This document shows positions 11,587-48,848 of a stretch of 64,000 nucleotides of DNA, piece by piece; within the stretch, counting starts at the first letter, position 1; each line of letters starts with the position of its first letter. The notes beneath the pieces are model-generated. The model ran no database searches. It was not told the DNA's origin and saw only the letters and a list, made by a program, of their open reading frames with translations. This DNA comes from Micavibrio aeruginosavorus EPB. GTDB lineage: Bacteria; Pseudomonadota; Alphaproteobacteria; Micavibrionales; Micavibrionaceae. Location: assembly GCF_000348745.1 (NCBI RefSeq), contig NC_020812.1:753444-817443 (forward strand). Direction: 5' to 3'. Both the position numbers and the translations under genes were made by a program.

Positions 11587-12637
11587 ATGGGTTGTTATTA
11601 TTGCGGGGCTGTTGTTGGTGTCGGGGTGCGGGTCGGCCCCGTATGATGTTCATACCTATAAATTCGGTCAGCATGGCGGCGCGGGCAGTTCCGGGGCCCA
11701 TGTCGTGGCCGCCGGGGACAGTGTTTATGCGCTGGCCGAACGCTATCGTCTGGATATGCGGGATATTATCACGGTCAATAATCTGAATGCGCCCTATACG
11801 CTGGAGCCGGGGCAGCATTTGCTGTTGCCGCCGCCGCGTGAATATAAGGTGCGCGCTGGGGATAGTCTTTATACCGTGTCGCGTTTGTTTGGGGTCAGCA
11901 TCACCGATATTGCGCGGCTGAATAATCTGCGCACACCCTATACCGTCATGGCGGGATCGACGTTGCGGATTCCGGCGACGGCGGTAGAAGAAACCGTAAC
12001 GCGCCAGCATGTTGCCATGAAGGGTGCCGCCAGTGCCGATGTGATTGAGCGTGAAACATTGGCACCAATCAATCCGCCCGCGCGGCCCGGCGCGGTGACG
12101 GCGGAGGCGTTGCCGCCCCCATCCTCATCCACTCAGGTGGCGAAGGCGTCGCCTTCATCCGCGTCTATCCCGGCACCGGATGTGCGTCCGGCCAACCAGG
12201 CGTCGAAAAAACTGGCCGCGAAAGTTCCGGAAACCGTGCCACCCCGCGCATCGTCAAAATTCCTGCGCCCGGTCGATGGCAAGGTGATTTCGTCCTATGG
12301 CGCGAAGGCGGGTGGTCTGCATAATGACGGCATCAATATTCAGGCGGCCAAGGGCGCGCCGGTGAAGGCCGCTGAAAACGGCGTTGTTGTGTATGCCAGC
12401 AATGAAATGAAGGGGTATGGGAATATGGTTCTGATCCGCCATGCGGATCGATGGATGACCGCGTATTCCCACATGGATTCCATCAGCATCAAACGTGGCG
12501 ATACGGTCAAACGTGGGCAGGCGATTGGCACGGTGGGGATGACCGGGTCGGTGGATACGCCGCAACTGCATTTTGAAATTCGCCGCGGGGTTCAGGCGTT
12601 GAATCCTGAAGCCTATCTGGATGGGCGGAAATCATAA
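11570..12637 (+). CDS. LysM/LytM lipoprotein, NlpD/DipM-like amidase activator
   Basis: 355 residues. The first of three consecutive ATGs (11570) gives a compact lipoprotein signal ending LLLVSGC. Two LysM peptidoglycan-binding domains follow (about residues 45-90 and 95-140), then a Pro/Ala/Ser-rich linker, then a LytM (M23) domain over the last 125 residues. The zinc site is degenerate: the canonical HxGID is NDGIN, and the HLHFE motif is QLHFE, leaving only YSH and the second His. This matches catalytically dead activators of cell-wall amidases. The start overlaps pcm and the stop overlaps the next gene by one base. Confidence 0.87.
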   Translation: MMMARKWVVIIAGLLLVSGCGSAPYDVHTYKFGQHGGAGSSGAHVVAAGDSVYALAERYRLDMRDIITVNNLNAPYTLEPGQHLLLPPPREYKVRAGDSLYTVSRLFGVSITDIARLNNLRTPYTVMAGSTLRIPATAVEETVTRQHVAMKGAASADVIERETLAPINPPARPGAVTAEALPPPSSSTQVAKASPSSASIPAPDVRPANQASKKLAAKVPETVPPRASSKFLRPVDGKVISSYGAKAGGLHNDGINIQAAKGAPVKAAENGVVVYASNEMKGYGNMVLIRHADRWMTAYSHMDSISIKRGDTVKRGQAIGTVGMTGSVDTPQLHFEIRRGVQALNPEAYLDGRKS

Positions 12638-13692
12638 TGGGGGGCGTGATTGGCCTGATGGCCGCGGTTCAGCAGGTGGGGTGGCTGGTCGCGGGCCTGT
12701 TCTTCTGGTTTATCGCGTGTGTGATGATCCTGAGTCATATCTATGATCGCCGGACCAAAAAAACCTATAACGGCCAGATTGCGGGTTTGCGCGTGCGCGG
12801 GGATGTGACGAAGGGGAAGGCTGTTTATTATCCGATTGTGTCTTATACAAACGAATCCGGTGCACTGATTGAAGCGGAAACGCGCCACGGATCATCCGGA
12901 TTGGCCGGAAAATTACCGGGGCGGGCCGTGCGCGTGATGCCGGATGCGCATGAACCCGGTGTTGTCACCATTCGCGACGGGTCCGGAATTTTCCTGACGC
13001 TGGTTTTATTGGCAATGGGCGCGGTGCCGATTATAATTGGCGTATCGCAATATCCCGTCACGCCCTATACGATTTTGATCTTTGCCGCTTTCGGGGCGTG
13101 GGTGGCGTGGAAGATTGCGCGCATGATCCGCCCGCGCCATGAATGGCAAAGCCGTGAAGAGTTCCGCCGTCGCAAGGCGGCAGAATTATTGACCAAGCGC
13201 GCAGAGTGCGCACGCATCAACCGCGATGAAGCAATCGTGCAGTTAAAGGCGATTGATGATCTGGCCTTCCGTTTTCTTCCTCTCAGTCTTTTGATCGCTT
13301 TTATTTTTCTGGGTGTTGGTGCATGGGTTGGCTATGACACGGGGACGCTGTTGAAAAACCGCGCCCATGCCGAGGGGCGCGTCGTGGCTCTTGATCGACC
13401 ATCAGGGTCGGATGCGTATTACCCGGTTGTGGAATATCGCACCCATGATGATGAATGGGTGCGCTTTACCGACAAGACGGGCAGCAATGCGCCCAGCGTG
13501 GCGGTTGGGCAGGGCGTTGATGTCATTTACGATGTCCGTAAACCGGACCGCGCCATGATTGGCACAACCGTGCCCGCCGTGTGGATTGTTGTGGTGGCGT
13601 GTGGTCTGGTCGGGTTGGTGGTGCTGGTGGCTGTGATCCGGACCTTTTGCGGCGTTACGATGTGGCGGCGGCGCGGCTATAATATTTTCTAA
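12637..13692 (+). CDS. Membrane protein with two DUF3592-type repeats
   Basis: 351 residues, beginning at an ATG that shares a base with the previous stop (TAATG). Four hydrophobic segments are visible (about 12-33, 113-131, 137-157, 211-233, with another at 314-336). Two extracytoplasmic or cytosolic beta modules repeat the same pattern: KAVYYPIVSYTNESGALIEAET with a G..V.V.PD..EPG end, and DAYYPVVEYRTHDDEWVRFTDK with VGQGVDVIYDVRKPDRA. This is the DUF3592 pattern of small integral proteins of unknown function. Likely co-transcribed with pcm and the NlpD-like gene. Confidence 0.7.
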   Translation: MGGVIGLMAAVQQVGWLVAGLFFWFIACVMILSHIYDRRTKKTYNGQIAGLRVRGDVTKGKAVYYPIVSYTNESGALIEAETRHGSSGLAGKLPGRAVRVMPDAHEPGVVTIRDGSGIFLTLVLLAMGAVPIIIGVSQYPVTPYTILIFAAFGAWVAWKIARMIRPRHEWQSREEFRRRKAAELLTKRAECARINRDEAIVQLKAIDDLAFRFLPLSLLIAFIFLGVGAWVGYDTGTLLKNRAHAEGRVVALDRPSGSDAYYPVVEYRTHDDEWVRFTDKTGSNAPSVAVGQGVDVIYDVRKPDRAMIGTTVPAVWIVVVACGLVGLVVLVAVIRTFCGVTMWRRRGYNIF

Positions 13693-13737
13693 TCCATTGA
13701 TTTTATAATGTTTTTGCCCGTTTGTTGGGGCGTAAAA

Positions 13738-13770
13738 TTCTTGCAATATTTCATAATATCGTACTATTGT
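13738..13770 (+). promoter_or_regulatory. Shared upstream element, copy A
   Basis: TTCTTGCAATATTTCATAAT and the following TATCGTACTATTG contain the inverted repeat CAATATT..AATAT. A nearly identical block occurs before the second paralogue at 15177-15209. Reading CTTGCA/TTGCAA as a -35 and TACTAT as a -10 gives a spacing of 15-16 bases, so it may be a promoter with a built-in operator. It ends about 35 bases before the ATG at 13804. Confidence 0.5.
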
Positions 13771-13803
13771 GCCGCACATTCAGGATCAAGGTACGGCGCG
13801 CAC

Positions 13804-15114
13804 ATGAAAATATGGGGCATCAGTTTTGGGTTTAATCGGCGCAGTGGGGGGACAGAATCTCCACTGGCGTTGCCAGCGCCTGAACAACCCTCCGATATCA
13901 TGCCCGCGTTTCAGCGTGCGGTCTATGGTGTGACGTGCCGCACGCTATCATATCCCGCCGTTGTCGCGGAGGATGCCGTTCATTACCGTGCCCTTGCTAC
14001 CACCATGACATTGGACCAATGGTGCATTCAAAAAATAACAGAGCGCGCAGCTCAGTTGGAAACAGATAAATGCCCGGTTTCCACACCCAACAGAAAAATT
14101 GATGTTGTGAAAGAGGGGCTTTGTTTTTTTGATGCGCTGACTTACCTGGCCCGGGTGGAGCAGGCGGCGCAAACCGATCCGGTGGGCCCGACGCGCAAAG
14201 ATTTGGGCACGGACCATTACGAAGCCTTTGGGCTTTTGCACGATATCATTCCGGATGTGCATGGTATGCCCCAACCGACAATCGGCGGGCATCCGATGGT
14301 TGCCGGGGTTTACGCGGATACGGCAACGGCGGCCTTGCACGATGCGCGGGGGCAGCTGGAATTAAAATCCATGCTGGCCCCAAAGGCGCAGATGGAAGCG
14401 CGCGGTAATGTTCTGAACCTTGGTGAAAAATTGCATAATTTTATGGTTCAGTCGCGCAAGGAAGATGATTTAAAACGTGCGGCGCAAATTATGACGTTGT
14501 GGGTTGATCTATGTGCGGAGATTTGGAACAGAGCCGATATGTGTATCTCTGATGAACGCTATCCGTATTATAACAGTGAACCGTACAATGGTCTTGCTCA
14601 ATCATCGTTAAATGACCGTTACGGTGTTGATATTCAATGTTACCGTTTTGACAGCACATATGATTATCGTGCCAGTGGTGTGTTTTCCCGCTGTGAAAAA
14701 GTTTTAAGCGAAATCAAGACGTTCAGTGCGGAGGAAAGTGCAACGGTTCATTCCTATCTGCGGGAAGCGGCGTATATCGCTATGGTTCAAGACGCGGCGT
14801 ATGTGCTGCGTGAAGCGAAGAATACGTCGGATGAATCGGCCAAGGCGTCAAAAACAATTTCCAGCATCCAGGATTCCGCCGCGCGGTTACAGAGCGAGGC
14901 TAATGGCAAATCGTATTATAAGGATGCCGTTGCAGATGAATATAAACGTCGCTTTATTGCTGATGTTGAAAGTTGGACCATGTTAAAGGCCATGCCGGAT
15001 CACATCGTGTCCGCGGCCAGAGCCATGCAACGCATGGCCGGAGAGGCGGCGCAAATGCGCCATCAGGTCTTGGTGGAGGCAAAAGCCGCCCAGAGCAAAA
15101 ACAGGCTCGGTTAG
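13804..15114 (+). CDS. Unknown family, tandem paralogue 1 of 3
   Basis: 436 residues from the ATG at 13804, which aligns with the starts of its two paralogues; an earlier in-frame codon would swallow the shared promoter-like element. No signal peptide or membrane segment is seen. It shares two blocks with the next two proteins: a block near residue 36 (FQRAVYGVTCRTL, then HYRALATTM..LDQW) and one near residue 110 (FDALTYLARVEQA, DPVG..RKDLGTDHYEAFGL, DVHGMPQPTIGG). The C-terminal half is helical and diverged. I recognise no known domain. Codon use appears more AT-rich than in neighbours. Confidence 0.75.
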   Translation: MKIWGISFGFNRRSGGTESPLALPAPEQPSDIMPAFQRAVYGVTCRTLSYPAVVAEDAVHYRALATTMTLDQWCIQKITERAAQLETDKCPVSTPNRKIDVVKEGLCFFDALTYLARVEQAAQTDPVGPTRKDLGTDHYEAFGLLHDIIPDVHGMPQPTIGGHPMVAGVYADTATAALHDARGQLELKSMLAPKAQMEARGNVLNLGEKLHNFMVQSRKEDDLKRAAQIMTLWVDLCAEIWNRADMCISDERYPYYNSEPYNGLAQSSLNDRYGVDIQCYRFDSTYDYRASGVFSRCEKVLSEIKTFSAEESATVHSYLREAAYIAMVQDAAYVLREAKNTSDESAKASKTISSIQDSAARLQSEANGKSYYKDAVADEYKRRFIADVESWTMLKAMPDHIVSAARAMQRMAGEAAQMRHQVLVEAKAAQSKNRLG

Positions 15115-15176
15115 GCGCAGGGTTGGCTTATCTCACTGATACTCAATAGTTTTTGTTGTGTTTCTTGCCCATAATT

Positions 15177-15209
15177 TTCTTGCAATATTCCATAATATAA
15201 CGCTATCCT
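15177..15209 (+). promoter_or_regulatory. Shared upstream element, copy B
   Basis: TTTTCTTGCAATATTCCATA followed by ATATAACGCTATCCTG matches copy A at 13738-13770 over about 30 bases, including the CAATATT..ATAATAT inverted repeat. The -10-like hexamer is CGCTAT rather than TACTAT. It lies about 53 bases before the ATG at 15262. It implies that paralogue 2 has its own start of transcription under the same control as paralogue 1. Confidence 0.5.
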
Positions 15210-15261
15210 GCCCCATTCTGAAATCGTCGGGGGTATGCCCCCATGTCCGGGACCGTATACG

Positions 15262-16476
15262 ATGAAATGGCTGTCGAAAGATAAGAGTGCGGCGAACCGT
15301 GATGAACGATCATTGCGGGGTCAGTTGCTGGATAATTTCCGCCGGGCCAAATACGGTGCGACATGCCGCACATTGGCATTCCCGACACAGATCGAAGGTG
15401 AAAGCCATTATTACCGCGCCACGGCCCTGACGCCGTTGCTGGATCAATGGATGGTTCAACGTGTTGTCGACCGTCCGGTTTTGCTGGAGCCGTCAAATCT
15501 TCCTGTTACAACGGACAATATCCAGCCGGTTCTCGTGCGGGATGATTTGAATTTTTTCGAAGCCATCGAATATCTGGCCCGGTTTGAAGTGACCAGCAAT
15601 GGTGACCCGGTGGGGGCAGATCGCGATGGCCTCAGTCTGGACCATTACGAATCATTCGCCATGCGTCATGAAATTCTGTTTGACGCGTCCGGTATGCCGC
15701 AACCAACCGTGAACGGGCAGATTGTGACTAACAATGCCTATGCCAAGCAAACAGTTGAAAAATTCAAAGAGATCCAGGATCAAAAGGGCGATCTCTCCGA
15801 TCAGGGCAGTGCCTGGCTGTGTGAAATGTTCAAGCAGAAAAGCCGTCTTGAGCCGTTGGTCATGGATTATCTGCGGAACAACAAGGTCATGCTGGATGGT
15901 CAGTCCGTTCTAAGTGTTATGAAACCCGTAACAGATCTTTTCGATGAAATGTGGCGTGCAAAATCTGTTTATGTATGGGATGCTTCGGAGTGCAAGGACA
16001 AAGGTCTGCGCCGCCTGAAACAGTATTTTGAAGGCAATATTGCCCGCGAACATATGGCGGATAGGGCAAAGACAGTATTTGGCCAATTGCGCAAGGATGC
16101 AAAAGCGCCGTTTTTTTCTCCTGCTGCAAAAAATATGCTGGAAACATTTCTGGATGAAATGGAAGCCATCGCCCTGACGCAGGAGGCTGTGTATCTGACG
16201 CACAGCACAGGCCTGCGCGATAACGAAAAAAATAACTGGATTTTAAAAGAGATCAGAAACCGTTATTTGCAATTGCAGGGGGGTGCCCTATCGGCGCGGT
16301 TCAATCCGTATTCCTCTGCACGCAAGGAATTTGACAGTATTGTCCGTAACGCCATCTTTCTGGACCACGTTCCACCGCATATTACGCACTATGTGCAAGG
16401 TATTCAAAACGGGCGTGAATCGGCATTGAAAACCATAGCAAATATACAGCGCATCAGCGGCAGGTATGTTGAATGA
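15262..16476 (+). CDS. Unknown family, tandem paralogue 2 of 3
   Basis: 404 residues from the ATG at 15262, chosen because it aligns with the paralogues. Block 1 (residues 26-65) reads FRRAKYGATCRTLAF, then YYRATALT.LLDQWMVQRV; block 2 (residues 97-152) reads FFEAIEYLARFEV, DPVGADRDGLSLDHYESFAM, DASGMPQPTVNG. It is closest to paralogue 1 in these blocks. The rest is predicted helical. It is soluble, without signal. Its TGA overlaps the ATG of paralogue 3 (ATGA), so those two are translationally coupled. Confidence 0.75.
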   Translation: MKWLSKDKSAANRDERSLRGQLLDNFRRAKYGATCRTLAFPTQIEGESHYYRATALTPLLDQWMVQRVVDRPVLLEPSNLPVTTDNIQPVLVRDDLNFFEAIEYLARFEVTSNGDPVGADRDGLSLDHYESFAMRHEILFDASGMPQPTVNGQIVTNNAYAKQTVEKFKEIQDQKGDLSDQGSAWLCEMFKQKSRLEPLVMDYLRNNKVMLDGQSVLSVMKPVTDLFDEMWRAKSVYVWDASECKDKGLRRLKQYFEGNIAREHMADRAKTVFGQLRKDAKAPFFSPAAKNMLETFLDEMEAIALTQEAVYLTHSTGLRDNEKNNWILKEIRNRYLQLQGGALSARFNPYSSARKEFDSIVRNAIFLDHVPPHITHYVQGIQNGRESALKTIANIQRISGRYVE

Positions 16477-17801
16477 AGCTGGGTTTTTTAAAAAGCTTCA
16501 GATGGCCTCAATTATTCTCTGTTGAACAACAGGAAGAGCAAAAGTTATTGCCAGCGCCTGCTGAGGAGACGCTGTCCGATGCTTTTTCAAAGGCTGTGTT
16601 CGGGCGAAAATTCCGTACCTGTGAATACACCAACGTCCATTTGCCCGAAGGCAATAGCCAGTATTTAAAGGCCGTTGCCCTGGCCGCCGATCAATGGAAT
16701 GTGGTTAAGGTGTCCCAAGTGGGGGATGATTACACCATCGTTCCCGTTTTGGAAAACGTTCAGTTTGGCAAGGCTGCACAATATTTACTGGAATATGAGG
16801 CCACGGCCCTGGATATGAATTTGATTCCTTGTGGTATGGACAGGGATGCGCTTGGGTTCGACCACGTTGAAAATTTCTGTCTGCGCGAAGGGATTGTTCC
16901 GGACCGTCATGGCCGTTTGCACTTACCCGTAGAAGGGGAAATCGTTACATCCGGAAATTTCGATCCCAATAATATAAAAAAATACGAAAATTTATATGCG
17001 CAAATTCAGTCCAGGGATTTGGTTCTGACGAATGTGTGGAATTCCCAGTGTATTGTCGATCTGTTCGCCCATTATAAAGAGGGCCCGCAATGGAGTGTTT
17101 TACGGCAGGACATTGCCGAAATGCATTGTTTAAAAGAAATCTATTTCGCGGTGCGCTGTGCCGTTTTGATTGAGCAATGTGTTCTGGATATTCAAAACGG
17201 ATCAAAAAAATATAATGATGATCCAATCAATAAAATCACGGGCCTTTTTGTGCTTGATGGGTTTTGGATCAATGATGAAGATATCCGCAGTATGGCCATG
17301 GCTGCGGTCGAAGACCGCAATTTTGCAATCGCGGATCATATCATCGAGCGATCCATTAACATTATTGGAACGCCCGTTGTTGAATTGGCGGATGTTAAAG
17401 AAGACGCCATTCGCTTCCTGCGTGATTTACGCATTTTTGAATGTGTGCGGAAAAGCAAAGACTTGCTTTCAAATGGCGCCCTGTCCATGGGGGCGTATCA
17501 GAAACAGAAAATTGATGAATGGATGTGCACCATGGTCACGATGGCGGGAAACAACGGATATTCTGATGAGCGGACAAGCCATATTCGTGCAGCTATGTGT
17601 GATACAACGCCATTAACCGAACTGCCCGTCGGGGCCATGGATTTTATGGCCAAGCTTGAAGCCAGCTATCGCGAAGCGGCCATGGTCATTGATCGGAAAA
17701 TTGGCAATGATCATCAGAAGGTCAGTGCACACAAATGGTTGCCGCAATCGTCCATAGTCTATGTCACCCGCAAAGGCGGAGATGGCGAATGGGAACCGTA
17801 A
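16473..17801 (+). CDS. Unknown family, tandem paralogue 3 of 3
   Basis: 442 residues, starting inside the previous stop (ATGA). It is the most diverged of the three but keeps both blocks: FSKAVFGRKFRTCEY, QYLKAVALAADQWNVVKV, then FGKAAQYLLEYEATA, CGMDRDALGFDHVENFCL, DRHGRLHLPVEG. The Cys content is higher than in the others. No signal peptide or membrane helix. A strong hairpin with a T-run follows at 17842-17876, closing the transcript. Confidence 0.75.
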   Translation: MKLGFLKSFRWPQLFSVEQQEEQKLLPAPAEETLSDAFSKAVFGRKFRTCEYTNVHLPEGNSQYLKAVALAADQWNVVKVSQVGDDYTIVPVLENVQFGKAAQYLLEYEATALDMNLIPCGMDRDALGFDHVENFCLREGIVPDRHGRLHLPVEGEIVTSGNFDPNNIKKYENLYAQIQSRDLVLTNVWNSQCIVDLFAHYKEGPQWSVLRQDIAEMHCLKEIYFAVRCAVLIEQCVLDIQNGSKKYNDDPINKITGLFVLDGFWINDEDIRSMAMAAVEDRNFAIADHIIERSINIIGTPVVELADVKEDAIRFLRDLRIFECVRKSKDLLSNGALSMGAYQKQKIDEWMCTMVTMAGNNGYSDERTSHIRAAMCDTTPLTELPVGAMDFMAKLEASYREAAMVIDRKIGNDHQKVSAHKWLPQSSIVYVTRKGGDGEWEP

Positions 17802-17841
17802 ATGGCGGTGGCGTGCTGATGCCTTGGGGCGGATACAAAAA

Positions 17842-17876
17842 ACGGCGATCCGGTTAATGGATCGCCGTTTTTTTTG
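17842..17876. terminator. Rho-independent terminator
   Basis: ACGGCGATCC/GGATCGCCGT stem with a seven-base loop, flanked by an A-run on the left and eight T on the right. It can serve both paralogue 3 on the plus strand and the convergent gene ending at 17892. Confidence 0.88.
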
Positions 17877-17891
17877 TATCCGTGTGTTGGG

Positions 17892-18530
17892 TTATGCCGG
17901 CTTCGGTGTGGCCGGGCCTTTTTTCAGCGAGGCCAGACTGGTCAGCGGTTTGGCGTTATCCGGGTTGGCCAGCCATGTGGCGTGAACCATGTGGGCACCA
18001 TCCTGCATGACGATGCAGTCGGCATTGTTGCCGCTGATCCGGTCGCGCAGGGATTTTACGGCGGCTTCGCCGGTGGCTTTCAATTCACCCAACTGCGGTT
18101 GGACCTTGGCAAATGTGCTGGCCAGTGTAGCGGCCATCTGGGCTTTGCCGATCAATCCACCTTTGACGGCACCCAGGAAGCTCATCGCCAGGGCGGGGGC
18201 TTCGCTCTTCAGCGTTTTGCCAACGGTTTTCAGGCTTTCAACGGCGGCGTCCTTGTTGAGGGCCAGGCCGTTGAGGCCATCCCGCTTCAATGCGGTGAGC
18301 ATTTCAACAAGGGATACGGAGTCCTTGGCCGGCGTCCATTCCGGCTGGTTCAACATGCGATACAGGCACAAAGACTGATCCAGTTTACGAATTTTGGTTT
18401 GGTCCAGATTGGTGTAGGTGAGCAGGGCGCTATACACCTTGCGCAGATCGGTCAGTGTACCGGCGACATGATAGTCTTGTCCGCCTTCACTGGCCCCGAC
18501 GGCCAGGACATGGGTTGGTTTTGTGGCCAT
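17892..18530 (-). CDS. Hypothetical protein divergent from the TelA gene
   Basis: 212 residues. The start is the ATG complementary to 18528-18530, preceded by GGAGAAAGAA, a good ribosome binding site; the frame stays open further upstream but without better signals. The N-terminus (THVLAVGASEGGQDYHVAGT, then LTDLRKVYSALLTY) faintly recalls the first strand and helix of caspase-like folds, but no His-Cys dyad is visible and the protein is too short. The rest is Ala/Lys-rich helices. It shares a 199-base divergent promoter region with the TelA-family gene, which suggests a functional link. Confidence 0.65.
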   Translation of the reverse strand: MATKPTHVLAVGASEGGQDYHVAGTLTDLRKVYSALLTYTNLDQTKIRKLDQSLCLYRMLNQPEWTPAKDSVSLVEMLTALKRDGLNGLALNKDAAVESLKTVGKTLKSEAPALAMSFLGAVKGGLIGKAQMAATLASTFAKVQPQLGELKATGEAAVKSLRDRISGNNADCIVMQDGAHMVHATWLANPDNAKPLTSLASLKKGPATPKPA

Positions 18531-18729
18531 TTCTTTCTCCAAAATATTATTTAAATTCAATGCGTTAGTGTTCTTTGATTTGAGTGTAGCCAAAAGGTGC
18601 AAAAAAAGAAAGTAATTTTTCATAAAAAGCTTGCGCGGGCTCAGGGTTGGCTTTATAAATTTCCGTAATATTTTTGCGGCGTGCGCCAAGAACCATAAAA
18701 GGCCAAGAATCATAAAAGGAACGAAAACA

Positions 18730-20172
18730 ATGGTTATGAAAGACGATGAAAACACAGACGTTCAGGTTGAAGTTTTGACCAGCGCGGATGGTGATCAATT
18801 CAACGATGTTCCCGATTATCGTACGGCCGATAAAAAAACACGCGCTGCGATGGATAAGATGATTGCAACGGTCGATTGGGATGATCTCAACACCATCATG
18901 GTTTTCGGCCAGGAAGCTCTGGACGAGGTTGCTGTTGTATCCGATGCGATTAATGATCGCGCGTTAAAGGATGACAGCTTCATGGCGGAGATGCGCAAAT
19001 GCGCAGAAGAAATTGAGAATATGGACGTCAGCGAAACAATGCAGCGCGTTCAGATGTTCGCAAAAGCCAGCCTCAATACGATTGTCGAGAATAAGGGCGC
19101 CGTGGCGACCGGGCTTTTGGGGACGATGCTGATGAACCCTCTCTATGGCCTTTTGGCCGGCATTGGCTTCAAAGGTGCTCAAGTTGCCAAAGAAAAGTAT
19201 GATGCTATCAAAGGCAAGGCCACTGGCGATATAGATCATGGCAAACAGGCAGAAGCCATTCGCGACGATTTGCGCAAAGCCATCCTGAGCACGCGGTCGA
19301 TTGTCAAGCAACTGGAAGATGGACGCGATAAAATCCCGCTCTATGTCAGCGAAGTAAACGCGTTGGGCGCGGCACAAACAAAAGCCGATAAGCTTATGGC
19401 TCTGGTAATCGGTGCGGGAAGGGAGGCACTGCGCCGTCTGCATGAAGATATTTTGCCTAAGATGACAGCGACAGATGCAGCCAGCCTAGATAGGTTGCGC
19501 GAACGCCAGATGGCTGGCCATGTCATGGAGAGAACCATCGACGGGCACATCGCATCACGCGCGATCGGTTTGAACAGCATGGTCGTTCTTTACGAAACAA
19601 AAAGAATGTACGCATCGACCTATTTAAAGTTTCAAGAGCATTTGAATCGGTCCGTTCGAGAATGGAAACGGCAGATTGCCCACGGGAATTTGATGGTTGA
19701 TCAGATGGACCTTCAGTTGGTCGGTACCGCGGCGGATAAAAAGGGAATTGATCTGCACGAAAAGGCGGAAAAATTGCATGAAACAACCCGCCTGATGCAC
19801 CAGAAGAGCATGGGGCAGGGCACCTATGATATGACCAAGATTGCGGAAGCAACGGAACGCCTCGTTAAAAAGATTGGTACAGATCTGAATGAACTGGGTG
19901 AAGCGCGAATTGCGCAGCAGGCCGCGCGGGATCGTTTGAATGCAGCCACGAAAGACCTGGCCTCGAAATTCCAGGAAAGCGTCCAGAAAGACTCGTTCCT
20001 GGTTCTGGAATCAGGCACCAAGAGCGCGGCGGCCCTGGAATTTGAGCAGAGCGCGAAAGTGGACACGCTGGTTGGCGATAATGACAATACGGCACAACCT
20101 GTTGAAGCCAAGCCGGGCGCGAAAAAGCCCCGTGCCCCGCGTGCCGCAAAGCCGAGCGCCAAGCCGAAATAA
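18730..20172 (+). CDS. TelA-family (toxic anion resistance) protein
   Basis: 480 residues from the ATG at 18730, preceded by AAAAGGAACG. The helical layout matches TelA proteins: an N-terminal segment before a long linker, a central pair of helices with the pattern ERTIDGHIASRAIGLNSMVV, a helix ending in SVREWKRQIAHG (compare the WKNQI of TelA), and a C-terminal helical bundle. A Gly/Ala hydrophobic stretch (about residues 122-146) interrupts it. A basic Pro/Ala/Lys tail ends the protein. TelA proteins act in envelope or phage/tellurite stress by an unclear mechanism. The neighbouring tandem paralogues may belong to the same system. Confidence 0.72.
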   Translation: MVMKDDENTDVQVEVLTSADGDQFNDVPDYRTADKKTRAAMDKMIATVDWDDLNTIMVFGQEALDEVAVVSDAINDRALKDDSFMAEMRKCAEEIENMDVSETMQRVQMFAKASLNTIVENKGAVATGLLGTMLMNPLYGLLAGIGFKGAQVAKEKYDAIKGKATGDIDHGKQAEAIRDDLRKAILSTRSIVKQLEDGRDKIPLYVSEVNALGAAQTKADKLMALVIGAGREALRRLHEDILPKMTATDAASLDRLRERQMAGHVMERTIDGHIASRAIGLNSMVVLYETKRMYASTYLKFQEHLNRSVREWKRQIAHGNLMVDQMDLQLVGTAADKKGIDLHEKAEKLHETTRLMHQKSMGQGTYDMTKIAEATERLVKKIGTDLNELGEARIAQQAARDRLNAATKDLASKFQESVQKDSFLVLESGTKSAAALEFEQSAKVDTLVGDNDNTAQPVEAKPGAKKPRAPRAAKPSAKPK

Positions 20173-20220
20173 GGCCTGAAATCTGGCTTAACGGCCTTAT
20201 TTCACAGGAAAATTATGAAC

Positions 20221-20252
20221 AAGCCCGCCAATCGCTTGCGTTTGGCGGGCTT
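20221..20252 (+). terminator. Hairpin, possible terminator after the TelA gene
   Basis: AAGCCCGCCAA pairs with TTGGCGGGCTT across a ten-base loop, 49 bases after the TelA-family stop and 65 before yajC. There is no real T-run, so it may be a weak or factor-assisted terminator. Confidence 0.4.
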
Positions 20253-20316
20253 GTGGCTATAGTCCGGGGACGATTCCACACATCTTTGTTACGAAAAATA
20301 CGAGGGTTTTTGCGCC

Positions 20317-20670
20317 ATGTTTATCTCTATCGCACATGCATCGGCTGATGCCGCCGCCGCAACCGGTTCCACGGGCGGGATGCTGACATCCAACCTGCTG
20401 ATGATCCTGTTGATGGTTGTCATGTTCTATCTGTTGCTGATCCGTCCGCAACAGCGCCGGTTTAAAGAACACCGCGATATGCTGGACGCGCTGAAAAAGG
20501 GCGACAAGGTTCTGACCGCTGGTGGCCTGATTGGTGCAGTAGACTCTATTGATACCGCGAATGGCGAAGTTGTTGTCGATCTGGGCAATGGTTTGAAGGT
20601 GACGGCTCTGCGCTCCACCATCCAGACCCGCATTGATCCGAAACCGGCCAACGACACCGTGAAGAAATAA
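20317..20670 (+). CDS. yajC: Preprotein translocase accessory subunit YajC
   Basis: 117 residues with one transmembrane helix (about 26-45, NLLMILLMVVMFYLLLIRPQ) followed by the YajC signature QQRRFKEHRDMLDALKKGDKVLTAGGLIG. It joins SecD and SecF in the inner-membrane complex that helps the Sec channel use the proton gradient. The N-terminal Ala-rich segment is longer than in E. coli, as is common in alphaproteobacteria. secD starts 30 bases downstream. Confidence 0.95.
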   Translation: MFISIAHASADAAAATGSTGGMLTSNLLMILLMVVMFYLLLIRPQQRRFKEHRDMLDALKKGDKVLTAGGLIGAVDSIDTANGEVVVDLGNGLKVTALRSTIQTRIDPKPANDTVKK

Positions 20671-20700
20671 TATAGACGGTCCAAAGAAGGGCGACCCCCC

Positions 20701-23262: not shown

Positions 23263-23631
23263 ATGGATGTCACACCGCTCGTCCCCTCTGGGGCCCAAAT
23301 TATCCAAGCCTATGCGGATGGAACATTCCGCATATCCGGCACGGTGCATGATGGGGCGGTTATTGTCTTTCCAGACCAGACAGTCAATTGGACCGTGTCC
23401 ACAGACATGGGTGTGGATGATTTTGCGCCGCTTCTGGCACGCGCCAGCGAATTGGATGTCGTGCTTCTGGGCCTGGGGGCCGGGGTGGCAAACCCGCCCT
23501 TTGAACTGCGCCGCGCTCTGAAGGACCGCGGTCTGGCGGTGGATTTCATGGATACCGGCGCGGCGTGCCGCACGTATAATGTTTTGATGGCGGAAGGGCG
23601 GCGCGTGGCCGCAGCTCTTTTGCCGGTTTAA
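23263..23631 (+). CDS. Mth938-domain protein (NDUFAF3 family)
   Basis: 122 residues, a single Mth938-like domain: the GAQIIQAYADGTFRISG start, LLGLGAGVANPPFELRRAL in the middle and GLAVDFMDTGAACRTYNVLM at the end. Human NDUFAF3 of this family is an early complex I assembly factor. In alphaproteobacteria the gene commonly sits behind secDF, next to a phytoene synthase-like gene related to NDUFAF6. Here that gene lies 2.6 kb further on. A role in respiratory complex I assembly is an inference. Confidence 0.85.
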   Translation: MDVTPLVPSGAQIIQAYADGTFRISGTVHDGAVIVFPDQTVNWTVSTDMGVDDFAPLLARASELDVVLLGLGAGVANPPFELRRALKDRGLAVDFMDTGAACRTYNVLMAEGRRVAAALLPV

Positions 23632-39668: not shown

Positions 39669-41861
39669 CTAGTATCCCGCGGCATGCGGGCGTGTCATAT
39701 AGGCCTGAAAGGCCCCGATGCTTTCATTAAACAGGGTCAGCAGCCTGTGGATAACGTCAATCGGTGGCGTGACGCCACCGCGGATTGGATCGGATTGTTC
39801 GTCCAAAAGCTGGCGGCAATATTGGGCCAGACGGCTCAGCCCGAAATTGCCGGCCACACCGGTCATGGAATGCAAGTCACCGCGCGGGATCGATCCCGAT
39901 TCTTCCAGAGTCGTCAGGATTCGTTCAGCATCCAAAATAAAATCGTGGAAGAGTTTAAGAAGCTGGTCATCACCGATATAGCTTGAAAACTGCTCCACTT
40001 GCTCCGCGTTGAGAAGGGGAATGGGCAGCAAATCATTGGCAATGACGGGCGGTGTAACAAACGGGTCATCCGTTCCGAGGCCCAAAACGGAATCGATGGT
40101 TTTATAAAGTTTCAGGGCATCCACCGGTTTGACCAGGCATTCATCCATTCCGGCTTCCAGGCAGGCCTTCATCTCCTCGGGCAGGGCGTGCGCGGTTAAG
40201 GCCACGATGGGCAGATCCATGGCCGACAACCCCAGCTCTTCGCGAATGACCGTGGTGGCCTCGATCCCGCTCATTCCGGGCATTTGAATATCCATCAGGA
40301 TCATGTCGTATGGCCTGGATTTCACGGCCTCGATCGCGGCATAGCCGTTATCGACGATGTCAAAGCTGTATCCACCTTTTCGAAGTTGGGCGGAGACCAA
40401 AGCCTGGTTCATCGGGATGTCTTCGGCGATCAGGATATGGGCTTTTTCAAGCTGTTGTGTCGTGGCCTGTTCGGGTTCAGGGGTGTTGCTGACCGGGATA
40501 ATCCCATCGGCCACCAATGTGGGCAGCGTGACGGTAAAGGTTGTGCCTTTTCCCTGTTCGCTGTTCACCGTGATTTTCCCATCCATCTGGGTCATCAGGT
40601 TCAGTGCGATACTCAACCCCAGGCCAGTGCCGCCGAAATTGCGCGTGATGGATGTGTCCGCCTGTTCAAAGGCTTCGAAAATGACTTTTAACTTATCTTC
40701 GGCAATCCCGATCCCCGTATCGGTGACAGAAATGGTCAGCATTTCATTCTGTTCGTTTATCGGGCTGGAATGCAAAGCCAGCCGGACCGATCCCGATTGC
40801 GTGAATTTCAAGGCGTTGGACAGAAGGTTCATGACCACCTGACGCAGGCGTAATTCGTCATTGACGATATATTCCGGAACGTTCGGCCCAATCACCATGT
40901 GCAGTTCCAGGCTTTTGCGATCCGCATCCGGTTGCACCAGATCGATACAGCTTTCCATCAAACTGCGAATGTTAAACGTGTGTTTGACGATTTTCATTTT
41001 TCCGGCCTCGATCTTCGAAAAATCGAGGATGTCATCAACCAGCAGGATCATAGAAGACACGGCGGAATGAATTTGTTTCAGGTAATAATCCTGCGTTTCA
41101 TCCAGTTTTGTCTTGCGCAACAGCTCGCTGAACCCGAAAACCCCGTTGATGGGGGTGCGAATTTCATGGCTCATTTTGGCCAGAAACAGGGACTTGGCTT
41201 TTGTGGCTTCTTCGGCGCGTTTTTCGCTGGCGGCCAAATCGTCGACCAGTTCATGGCGGCGTAAATCCTGTAACATGATGAGGCCGAAAACAAAGGTCCA
41301 GAACGCCGTGGTCATGTACAAGGCCTGAATAACGCCAGATGCGATAATTTCTCTGGCGGAAAAAGGCATCAGGAAAAAGACAGACAATGTGATGATTGGC
41401 GATACGATGGAGAACAGCAGGATATTCAGAACACCAATCCGTTGATTGTTTTGGTCCAGCCATGCGCGATAGGCCAGGCCGCAACCAACCGAAATCCACA
41501 TACCCATGATCGCGGTGGGAACCCCCAGCCCGCCAAAATAAGCCCGCGTGGCCGATGTGATGAGGGCGGCAATCGCCGCCGGAATCGGGCCGACAAAGAA
41601 GGCGCAGATGGCCAGAATGGCATTCCGCGCATCCAGAACCACTTCGCTGGAATAACGAACCGCCATGGCAATCATCAACGAGGCCAGGCACCCGAAAACA
41701 ATGCCGACGATAATTTTGCGGCGCGCTGTGTTCTGTGACCGGGACCAGTCTTCGGCCAGCCCGAACAGCGCAAAGATCCCGACCGTGATCAGGAAATGTT
41801 CGGCAATGGTTTGGAGCGAGGTCACGCTGTCCGTCGGGAAAAGAAAAGTTTTACTGTGCAT
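39669..41861 (-). CDS. Hybrid histidine kinase with 5TM sensor, receiver and HPt domains
   Basis: 730 residues. A 5TMR-LYT-type membrane sensor (residues 20-200, with DARNAILAICAFFVGP and the GG.G motif), a HisKA domain with the phospho-His in SHEIRTPING (His232), an HATPase domain with NLLSNALKF, DTGIGI and GGTGLGLSIA, a receiver with the phospho-Asp in LMDIQMPGM (about Asp524), and a C-terminal HPt with His in DLHSMTGVAGNFG (about 664). It should relay phosphate internally. Its response regulator partner is not in the window. The signal is unknown. Confidence 0.93.
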   Translation of the reverse strand: MHSKTFLFPTDSVTSLQTIAEHFLITVGIFALFGLAEDWSRSQNTARRKIIVGIVFGCLASLMIAMAVRYSSEVVLDARNAILAICAFFVGPIPAAIAALITSATRAYFGGLGVPTAIMGMWISVGCGLAYRAWLDQNNQRIGVLNILLFSIVSPIITLSVFFLMPFSAREIIASGVIQALYMTTAFWTFVFGLIMLQDLRRHELVDDLAASEKRAEEATKAKSLFLAKMSHEIRTPINGVFGFSELLRKTKLDETQDYYLKQIHSAVSSMILLVDDILDFSKIEAGKMKIVKHTFNIRSLMESCIDLVQPDADRKSLELHMVIGPNVPEYIVNDELRLRQVVMNLLSNALKFTQSGSVRLALHSSPINEQNEMLTISVTDTGIGIAEDKLKVIFEAFEQADTSITRNFGGTGLGLSIALNLMTQMDGKITVNSEQGKGTTFTVTLPTLVADGIIPVSNTPEPEQATTQQLEKAHILIAEDIPMNQALVSAQLRKGGYSFDIVDNGYAAIEAVKSRPYDMILMDIQMPGMSGIEATTVIREELGLSAMDLPIVALTAHALPEEMKACLEAGMDECLVKPVDALKLYKTIDSVLGLGTDDPFVTPPVIANDLLPIPLLNAEQVEQFSSYIGDDQLLKLFHDFILDAERILTTLEESGSIPRGDLHSMTGVAGNFGLSRLAQYCRQLLDEQSDPIRGGVTPPIDVIHRLLTLFNESIGAFQAYMTRPHAAGY

Positions 41862-46453: not shown

Positions 46454-46912
46454 TTAAGGCTTGGGCGCATTCAAACGGCGGGAACGCCAGACCATCCCGC
46501 CAAAGGCGTACAGGCCAACCATGCCGCCGAACAAAACCATGGATTTGTTGATGCTCAAGGCTGTTGCCGCATTTTTTACGGCCCGCGCGTGTTCGTGTTC
46601 GGCGCAATTTTTAACCGGAGTGGAATGCGGTTGAACTGGCACGTCGAAGCGTACGATCTGGTCTTGGTCGCCGGCTTCTATTGTATAGGCCCGTTCCCAA
46701 ACAACATTAAATGCATTACGGCGAACGCACAGGTTCTTGTATGTGGTGTGCGCCTGTTCCGGGGACATGGATTTCAATGCGCTGTGGGTTGCATTCCGAT
46801 CACTGATCATTGCGCCGTTATAGGCGGCAACCGCCGCACCAAAAACCAGGGCCAAGCCGAGGGCTTTGTTGCTGCGCAAATACCAGGGGAGTTTGGGTGT
46901 TTTGTTTGTCAT
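46454..46912 (-). CDS. Two-membrane-segment protein with paired Cys, paralogue 3 of 3
   Basis: 152 residues from the ATG complementary to 46910-46912, after GGGACGG; earlier in-frame starts exist. Segments at about 17-35 and 124-142 enclose a loop with MSPEQAHTTYKNLCVRRNAF (Cys62) and VKNCAEHEHARA (Cys103). Only 21 bases separate it from the next gene. It is first in the transcript of the three and has the most basic C-terminus (WRSRRLNAPKP). Confidence 0.72.
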   Translation of the reverse strand: MTNKTPKLPWYLRSNKALGLALVFGAAVAAYNGAMISDRNATHSALKSMSPEQAHTTYKNLCVRRNAFNVVWERAYTIEAGDQDQIVRFDVPVQPHSTPVKNCAEHEHARAVKNAATALSINKSMVLFGGMVGLYAFGGMVWRSRRLNAPKP

Positions 46913-47063
46913 GGTAAACCGTCCCATTTTTAATAATTTGGCGGAGAATAGGCCTCCTTTCATAATCTGTCAAAAAGTGCGGCCCGGGGGCATTTTGGGC
47001 TGGTGTTTACCTTTGAAACGCCTATTCTTTCAATGAATTAGCCGTATGTGTAGGAGTATTGCC

Positions 47064-48341: not shown

Positions 48342-48848
48342 TCACGGGTGGGGCGCGCCGACCTGCTGGGCCTTCACGCGGATTTTGGCAACATTCAAGG
48401 CCATGCGTGCATCGTTCAGGGCTTCATGGATTGCCTGCCGTGTTTCATATGGTGCGGGTTGGGGTGACCCGTTGCATGCGGCGTTTGTTTTTGTGAAAAC
48501 GTCCAGATAATCCTCTGCCTGTTTCAGAAGTTTCAGGTTTTCCGGTGTGGCGTCGAACGGTTGTTCCAACCACCGCGTAATGGCATTCGTCATACGGATT
48601 GTTGTGTATGCTGTGCAGGGATAAACGACAACGGTTGCCGGGCCATTTTCCATTTCGGATGGAACGGCATATTCCACAATACCGGTGGTCGGGTTGATGG
48701 ATAATGTCCCAAGCGCCAGTCCGTCGGTGTTGAATGTGTGGGCCTGCGGCGGGGTGGGGGCCGTTTCGATTTGTTGTGGCGCGGGTGCAATAGCGGCGCA
48801 GCCGGAAAAGATCAGCGACAAGCCCAGAAGAGCGGCTTTATTTTTCAT
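48342..48848 (-). CDS. Predicted lipoprotein
   Basis: 168 residues. Signal ending GLSLIFSGCAA, a lipobox. A Pro/Thr-rich spacer (QIETAPTPPQ) precedes a domain of about 120 residues with a Cys at VVYPCTAYTT and another at NAACNGS. The second half is helical (LKLLKQAEDYLDVFTKT, QAIHEALNDARMALNVAKIR). No family recognised. Anchoring in the outer membrane is expected. Confidence 0.65.
   Translation of the reverse strand: MKNKAALLGLSLIFSGCAAIAPAPQQIETAPTPPQAHTFNTDGLALGTLSINPTTGIVEYAVPSEMENGPATVVVYPCTAYTTIRMTNAITRWLEQPFDATPENLKLLKQAEDYLDVFTKTNAACNGSPQPAPYETRQAIHEALNDARMALNVAKIRVKAQQVGAPHP

What the first reader, a model, noticed from the sequence alone, without database searches (positions are those of the whole stretch)
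13804..17801. Three tandem genes of an unknown family next to a TelA gene
Three genes of 404-442 residues in a row share two conserved blocks (a R-T block near the N-terminus with LDQW/ADQW, and a DP.G..RD.L..DH.E.F block followed by G.P.P.v.G) but no domain I can name. Copies 2 and 3 overlap by ATGA, and copies 1 and 2 share an upstream element. A TelA-family gene and a divergent unknown gene adjoin them. I infer a multi-gene stress or defence module.
Basis: partly seen in the sequence, partly recalled or inferred. Interest (0 to 1): 0.8.

Follow-up and report, generated by a model that had tools for sequence, protein, structure and literature searches.

The report
TelA-linked expanding adaptor gene family
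A predatory bacterium and some of its relatives carry a fast-changing, multi-copy gene family without a known name, linked to a stress-resistance gene called TelA, which suggests a membrane-stress module whose target is still unknown.

Summary
Three tandem genes (436, 404, 442 aa) share a ~160-aa N-terminal domain; none reaches a Pfam, NCBIfam, PADLOC or PHROGs family. The neighbour at 18730-20172 is a divergent TelA-family (PF05816) protein: it misses Pfam itself, but 20 of 25 members of its family match. A domain profile finds the family in 30 of 142 genomes of this order (Micavibrio and Alphaproteobacteria MAGs) and, besides the own genome, in none of a class sample (385) and a phylum sample (398). 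TelA is in 28 of the 142 genomes, both are in 27; 22 of 33 TelA places have a family gene within 3 kb, all on the same strand. The domain is kept (90 of 91 link up) while C-termini fall into 27 groups, a few with ankyrin repeats. Of 60 gene pairs compared between two strains, TelA and copies 2 and 3 are the least conserved. The domain model resembles a WGR fold without the WGR motif; this is suggestive only. Most likely the copies are interchangeable cytosolic adaptors that work with TelA at the inner membrane in envelope protection. That function is inferred, not shown; prey-effector and anti-phage readings stay open.

The parts
13741..13759 (+). Shared upstream element, copy 1 (TTGCAATATTTCATAATAT), 44 bases before g1
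   Evidence: kept in ARL-13 with 1 mismatch
13804..15114 (+). g1, 436 aa: N-terminal family domain plus C-terminal region of group 4
15180..15198 (+). Shared upstream element, copy 2 (TTGCAATATTCCATAATAT), 63 bases before g2
   Evidence: exact in ARL-13
15262..16476 (+). g2, 404 aa: N-terminal domain plus helical C-terminal region; structure model mean pLDDT 85.2
16473..17801 (+). g3, 442 aa: same N-terminal domain, a different C-terminal group (3); start overlaps the stop of g2 (ATGA)
17843..17867 (+). Hairpin after g3 (9 bp stem, 7-base loop, T-run after, A-run before): likely terminator, possibly bidirectional
   Evidence: sequence; the generic scan did not list it
17892..18530 (-). Divergent gene, 212 aa, no named domain; found in 3 of 142 order genomes, all of this genus
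18730..20172 (+). TelA-family (PF05816) protein, 480 aa, highly divergent between strains

Best explanation
The three genes belong to a lineage-specific family of cytosolic two-part proteins: one shared N-terminal domain plus interchangeable C-terminal regions. They work with a TelA-family protein. I think the shared domain docks on TelA, or on a partner common to all of them, at the inner face of the inner membrane. The variable C-termini would each bind a different partner or ligand, so that the set acts as a repertoire of adaptors in an envelope-protection module. Shown: the family, its restriction to the order in the genomes sampled, its co-occurrence and operon-like linkage with TelA, the conserved/variable split, tandem arrays, and unusually fast divergence of TelA, g2 and g3 between strains. 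Inferred: physical interaction, membrane position, adaptor role, envelope stress as the trigger.
For: Family in 30 and TelA in 28 of 142 order genomes, both in 27 (Fisher p 1e-24 by genome, 3e-9 by genus; neither corrects fully for shared descent). 22 of 33 TelA places have a family gene within 3 kb, 22 of 22 on the same strand; in 16 of the 22 TelA comes first. N-terminal domains: 90 of 91 in one similarity component; C-termini: 86 split into 27 groups. Four of 88 complete copies match Pfam ankyrin repeats, a protein-binding repeat. 53 of 94 copies lie in same-strand arrays. TelA is 51%, g2 72% and g3 76% identical to ARL-13 against a median of 93% for 60 gene pairs; TelA dS 2.39 against a median of 0.62. 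TelA is described as forming sub-membrane structures in the Ter system (PMC7824862, passages), and a Listeria telA mutant as more sensitive to nisin and tellurite (PMC12791056, passages citing an older paper). Some relatives' operons also hold an unnamed ~500-aa protein or proteins that look, by eye, as if they had a hydrophobic N-terminal stretch.
Against: No interaction, localisation or phenotype was tested. In the window TelA is probably not in the same transcription unit. 11 of 33 TelA places are not linked: a few lie at contig ends or are fragments, but in G025, G087, G090, G093, G096, G084 and for one copy in G102 the family genes are on other contigs or far away. Three genomes have the family without TelA, one has TelA without the family, and for two of the 27 with both (G100, G106) the TelA match is a short fragment. 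G025 has 23 family matches and one unlinked TelA. 76 of 88 family proteins have no strongly hydrophobic stretch, so membrane contact would be indirect. Profile comparison of the family against TelA finds no homology, which neither helps nor refutes docking.
Confidence: 0.42

Rival explanations
1. Prey-directed effectors: the shared N-terminal domain is a delivery module and the variable C-termini are the active parts, sent into prey; TelA would be a chaperone or platform.
For: Constant N-terminus with variable C-terminus, copy-number expansion, a predatory genus. 32 of 87 copies start with a short aromatic-plus-basic peptide against 31 of 328 naively called other genes, a pattern chosen after seeing the sequences. 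The ankyrin-bearing members match NCBIfam models of ankyrin effectors (best E 9.6e-14), as expected from the repeats alone.
Against: Among 88 complete copies Pfam recognises nothing but ankyrin repeats at E<=0.001. NCBIfam's other matches are single ones (MzaA, adenylate kinase, a leader peptide) and were not traced. The ARL-13 genome paper reports no evidence of type III or IV secretion. The one C-terminus modelled, that of g2, is a bundle of helices.
Confidence: 0.15
2. Anti-phage or anti-plasmid defence, a cut-down Ter-like system in which the copies recognise different invaders.
For: TelA is a component of Ter systems credited with resistance to phages and xenobiotics (PMC7824862 passages). 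Fast divergence fits an arms race. 4 of 88 copies match the candidate-defence model PDC-M72A, best E 6.7e-16; which copies is not shown, presumably the ankyrin ones.
Against: No PADLOC hit for the window's six proteins at E<=1, only scattered hits among 57 flanking proteins, no match for g2 in phage or plasmid records. The flanking Pfam families displayed (25 of 51) are largely housekeeping ones by my reading.
Confidence: 0.15
3. DNA- or RNA-binding regulators: the N-terminal domain is a diverged WGR domain that binds nucleic acid.
For: The five best structural rows for the domain are all WGR domains of PARP1 or PARP2 (Z 4.7-5.2, 80-82 residues, rmsd 3.5-4.2; best other row 4.1). Profile alignment with 14 WGR sequences has the same order of elements and scores above 150 of 150 block shuffles, narrowly (16.8 against a maximum of 16.7, mean 10.4; reversed control 10.0).
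Against: No Pfam WGR hit. The W-G-R motif is absent from the family consensus. hhalign probability is only about 3%. Foldseek alone gives no match at E<=0.001. Z under 8 can be a common arrangement.
Confidence: 0.12
4. Hitchhiking: a rapidly duplicating paralogous family of ordinary cytosolic proteins that merely sits next to TelA by descent.
For: Related genomes share the arrangement, so the counts are not independent; G025 expanded without TelA linkage.
Against: Linkage recurs with different C-terminal groups (0, 2, 5, 7 and singletons) and in both orders, TelA first (16) or family gene first (6). Presence and absence move together within genera: G006 (100% complete) lacks both while G130 has both; G018 lacks both while G053 has both; G003 and G004 (81% and 86% complete) lack both.
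Confidence: 0.16

Closest known systems
XpaC-TelA (YaaN) operons of Bacillus and Listeria
   Same: A TelA-family protein in an operon with a second protein of poorly known function (PMC12791056, passages)
   Different: The partner here is a multi-copy family with a constant N-terminal domain; no Pfam XpaC match
Ter (tellurite/phage/xenobiotic stress) systems with TelA
   Same: TelA component; proposed sub-membrane role (PMC7824862, passages)
   Different: No TerB/C/D/F family among six window proteins or in the 25 families displayed for 57 flanking proteins (26 more families were not displayed)
WGR domain (PF05406; PARP1/2, YehF)
   Same: Similar order of strands and helix by structure and weak profile match
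   Different: No W-G-R motif, no Pfam hit, a longer domain with extra C-terminal elements

Membership tests
TelA (PF05816), for window 18730-20172 | Sequence homology to TelA proteins | tested here: met
   43% identical ortholog in the same genus (G001) passes Pfam's cut-off (34.3-34.8 bits against 30); 4 of 6 homologs scanned singly pass it; 20 of 25 members match at E<=0.01
TelA (PF05816), for window 18730-20172 | The window protein itself scores over the Pfam cut-off | tested here: not met
   no TelA hit at E<=1; I call it a divergent relative by way of its homologs
WGR (PF05406), for the N-terminal domain | Pfam WGR match | tested here: not met
   no hit at E<=1 for g1-g3 and none at E<=0.001 in 88 copies
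WGR (PF05406), for the N-terminal domain | W-G-R signature | tested here: not met
   consensus of 91 domains has no W-G-R; the nearly invariant W aligns before that position
WGR (PF05406), for the N-terminal domain | WGR fold | tested here: inconclusive
   top five VIA-align rows are WGR, Z 4.7-5.2; no Foldseek match at E<=0.001
Ter stress system | TerC, TerD or TerB in the module | tested here: inconclusive
   none in six window proteins; flanks only partly scanned and partly displayed
Anti-phage defence system | PADLOC model match in the window's module | tested here: not met
   0 of 6 window proteins; elsewhere in the family 4 of 88 copies match PDC-M72A
Secreted predation effectors | Delivery out of the predator | not testable with these tools
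   needs fractionation or imaging

The most novel reading that the evidence does not exclude
A TelA-based recognition repertoire peculiar to predatory and related Alphaproteobacteria: a diverged WGR-like domain docks a set of swappable sensor or effector tails onto a membrane-associated TelA scaffold, and the set diversifies by tandem duplication and allele replacement as predator, prey and phage counter each other.
Probability: 0.22. Interest if true: 0.82.

Novelty: new variant of a known kind. Interest (0 to 1): 0.6.

Why it matters
The mechanism of TelA is unclear; one held paper says it is not known for the Listeria protein (PMC12791056, passages). Here TelA has a dedicated, diversifying partner family found only in one order among the genomes sampled, which makes its partners directly testable. 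[quoted passage not shown]

Tried and rejected
Family scans of six window proteins gave no family for g1-g3; the Pfam hits shown at E<=1 (GIT1_C, EspA, Reov_VP3_MTase2) are below their cut-offs and were dismissed. All 88 complete copies: Pfam finds only ankyrin-type families at E<=0.001, at most 4 copies each; NCBIfam gives ankyrin effector models and three single matches that I did not trace; PADLOC gives PDC-M72A in 4. A motif search for ankyrin units picked out only L086 and L087, so the fourth ankyrin-bearing copy is not identified (L087 and L088 were scanned singly). The PDB sequence search with the full-length profile gave mostly designed helical bundles, best E 0.0017 to 2lse, dismissed as helix-bundle similarity; with the domain profile only expansin at E 1.5; with TelA mostly coiled-coil proteins, best E 0.03. 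Foldseek against PDB and viral models with full-length g2: nothing at E<=0.001. VIA rows for the helical part (phage baseplate Z 6.3, bestrophin) are in the range the tool calls common for helical proteins. WGR genes: 0 of 58 relatives, 11 of 385 class genomes, used only as a comparison set. Homology of the family with TelA: none. Rfam: no match at 13000-20700. Promoter scan: 4 sites against 8.1 in shuffles. A 'LPAP'-like head motif is in only 11 of 91 members. Phages and plasmids: no match for g2. Genome and viral contigs: none for g2; for an alignment of seven relatives, eight genome contigs and no viral one.

Rows dropped before counts. Domain comparisons leave out 3 of 94 ORFs with short domain matches; the C-terminus count leaves out 5 of 91 under 100 aa. 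The 94 ORFs include contig-cut pieces (88 are complete) and one gene split over two contigs of G025, counted twice. The place count used 33 of the 40 TelA rows (7 weak or partial ones left out) and 39 of the 88 family rows (those left out lie on contigs without a TelA row or further from it). The TelA alignment leaves out 2 contig-cut ORFs of 27. The 60 gene pairs are those with a match in the ARL-13 stretch; window genes without one are not in the median. Of 82 flanking ORFs around 21 TelA loci (naive gene calls, some probably not genes), 10 were scanned singly, 57 as an alignment, and 15 not at all. No paper in the held library has both Micavibrio and TelA, or both 'WGR domain' and 'toxic anion resistance', on Micavibrio paralogous families, returned one unrelated paper on metal efflux. 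These are the whole basis for saying the family is not in print in that library.
Full report
WHERE IT IS. The window is bases 753444-817443 of a complete 2,458,610-base chromosome. A sister genome in the set is 2,481,983 bases long, the published length of Micavibrio aeruginosavorus ARL-13, a predator that feeds while attached to its prey (abstract). From recall, the window's own length is that of strain EPB. Named records of relatives are Alphaproteobacteria, Rhodospirillales or Rhodospirillaceae MAGs, one of them named Micavibrio sp..

THE OBSERVATION. The element occurs twice in the genome at 0-1 mismatch, both times before these genes, and both sites are kept in ARL-13. A hairpin with a T-run follows g3. 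The own genome holds two more copies elsewhere.

THE FAMILY. A profile of the N-terminal domain (A2, 42 members) finds the family in 30 of 142 genomes of the order, 17 of 54 genera. In a class sample of 385 and a phylum sample of 398 it finds only the own genome; the two samples overlap in part, and the displayed rows of the class sample include three more genomes of the same family, without a match. Matches per genome reach 23, in G025. In the stretches fetched there are 94 ORFs of the family (88 complete; one gene is split over two contigs and counted twice), 53 of them in 22 same-strand arrays; 25 of 31 gaps within arrays are 35 bases or less. In an all-against-all search 90 of 91 N-terminal domains join one component, but 86 C-terminal regions fall into 27 groups, 17 of them single. 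So one module is kept and the other is varied. Of 88 complete copies, 4 match Pfam ankyrin repeats and nothing else is recognised at E<=0.001; two of them, of 721 and 748 aa, were seen singly. g1 and g3 belong to different C-terminal groups (4 and 3); g2 groups only with its ARL-13 ortholog.

TELA. The window protein at 18730-20172 has no TelA match itself, but its family is TelA: orthologs in G074, G085, G001 and G103 pass the Pfam cut-off and 20 of 25 members match at E<=0.01. A TelA profile finds 28 of 142 genomes. Reading the two lists together, 27 have both (two of them, G100 and G106, only by a short TelA match), 3 the family only (G037, G067, G076) and 1 TelA only (G070, at a contig end). 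Of 33 TelA places, 22 have a family gene within 3 kb, all on the same strand. The unlinked 11 are contig ends (G105, G070), a fragment (G100), one at 5.9 kb (G001), and separate places (G025, G102 second copy, G084, G087, G090, G093, G096). In 16 of the 22 TelA is followed by one to three family genes; in 6 (the two Micavibrio strains, three places with the 721-748-aa proteins, and G053) the family gene comes first. Some operons add an unnamed ~500-aa protein before TelA (L098, L104, L134) or, by eye, proteins with a hydrophobic N-terminal stretch after the family gene (L100, L104, L134).

EVOLUTION. For 60 gene pairs of the window with ARL-13, median protein identity is 93% and median dS 0.62. 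TelA (51%), g2 (72%) and g3 (76%) are the three least conserved; TelA has the highest dS (2.39), g2 1.39 and g3 1.03, while yajC-secDF next door are 98-99% identical with dS 0.4-0.5. dS of 1 or more is also seen elsewhere in the window (48342-48848 1.41; 39669-41861 and 23263-23631 1.02). A high synonymous distance beside conserved genes points to allele replacement, above all for TelA; break points were not mapped. g1 (83% with the longest reading frame, 87% with the chosen start) is nearer to ordinary.

STRUCTURE. g2 folds with mean pLDDT 85.2 and the N-terminal domain alone with 92.8: strands, one helix, then small extra elements; the C-terminus of g2 is a bundle of helices. No Foldseek match reaches E 0.001. 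Re-alignment puts PARP1/PARP2 WGR domains in the five top rows (Z 4.7-5.2; next 4.1). A profile comparison with 14 WGR sequences is weak (probability about 3%, P 0.013-0.017); it beats all of 150 block shuffles, but only narrowly (16.8 against a maximum of 16.7, mean 10.4). The W-G-R motif is missing. I call it WGR-like in shape, not a WGR member.

HOW IT MOST LIKELY WORKS. TelA is described as a part of sub-membrane structures in stress systems (PMC7824862, passages), and a telA mutant of Listeria as more sensitive to nisin and tellurite (PMC12791056, passages). The simplest reading is that the shared domain is the common contact, with TelA or with something TelA serves, and that the variable tails choose partners. 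76 of 88 members lack a strongly hydrophobic segment; about a third begin with a short aromatic and basic peptide that could touch membrane (32 of 87 against 31 of 328 naively called genes, a pattern chosen after inspection). Steps shown: family, linkage, variation, fast divergence. Steps inferred: contact, place, trigger.

WHAT SPEAKS AGAINST. No experiment; linkage is not universal; the window's TelA probably has its own transcription unit behind an opposite-strand gene found in only 3 genomes, all of this genus; counts come from related genomes. Defence is not supported for the window and only thinly elsewhere (4 of 88 copies match PDC-M72A; scattered hits in flanks), but it is not excluded. 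Prey effectors are not excluded.

VERDICT. A real, order-specific (in the genomes sampled) and diversifying family without a name in the libraries searched, tied to TelA. It is a new variant of TelA modules. The biology is open but testable.

Noticed in passing
window 12637-13692: A DUF3592 gene ends 111 bases before g1 on the same strand and is also fast-changing (81% identical to ARL-13, dS 0.90); it may belong to the same transcription unit.
   Followed up: partly
L100:3162-4726: Three ~170-aa paralogs, by eye with a hydrophobic N-terminal stretch, follow TelA and the family gene on the same strand; no Pfam hit for the two scanned.
   Followed up: partly
L104:1993-3525, L098:1675-3174, L134:3917-5434: An unnamed ~500-aa protein precedes TelA in three genomes; pairwise E about 1e-80 or better.
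   Followed up: partly
L087:5371-7617, L088:5707-7872, L086:2453-4666: Large family members with TelA as the next gene; ankyrin repeats shown by Pfam for L087 and L088, and L086 shares their C-terminal group. A fourth ankyrin-bearing copy was counted but not identified.
   Followed up: partly
L031, L036, L032, L034, L035, L033, L093 (genome G025): Extreme expansion, 23 matches, in tandem arrays of up to five, with a single unlinked TelA gene.
   Followed up: no
L043:3149-6127 and L049:3602-4849: ARL-13 has two family genes at a locus where the window's strain has only one, so copy number differs between strains.
   Followed up: no
window 46454-46963 and 48342-48848: Two other fast-changing genes in the window: 78% identity, and dS 1.41.
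   Followed up: no
not in window: The NCBI taxonomy copy files Micavibrio aeruginosavorus under Bdellovibrionota, although the relatives found here are Alphaproteobacteria records.
   Followed up: no
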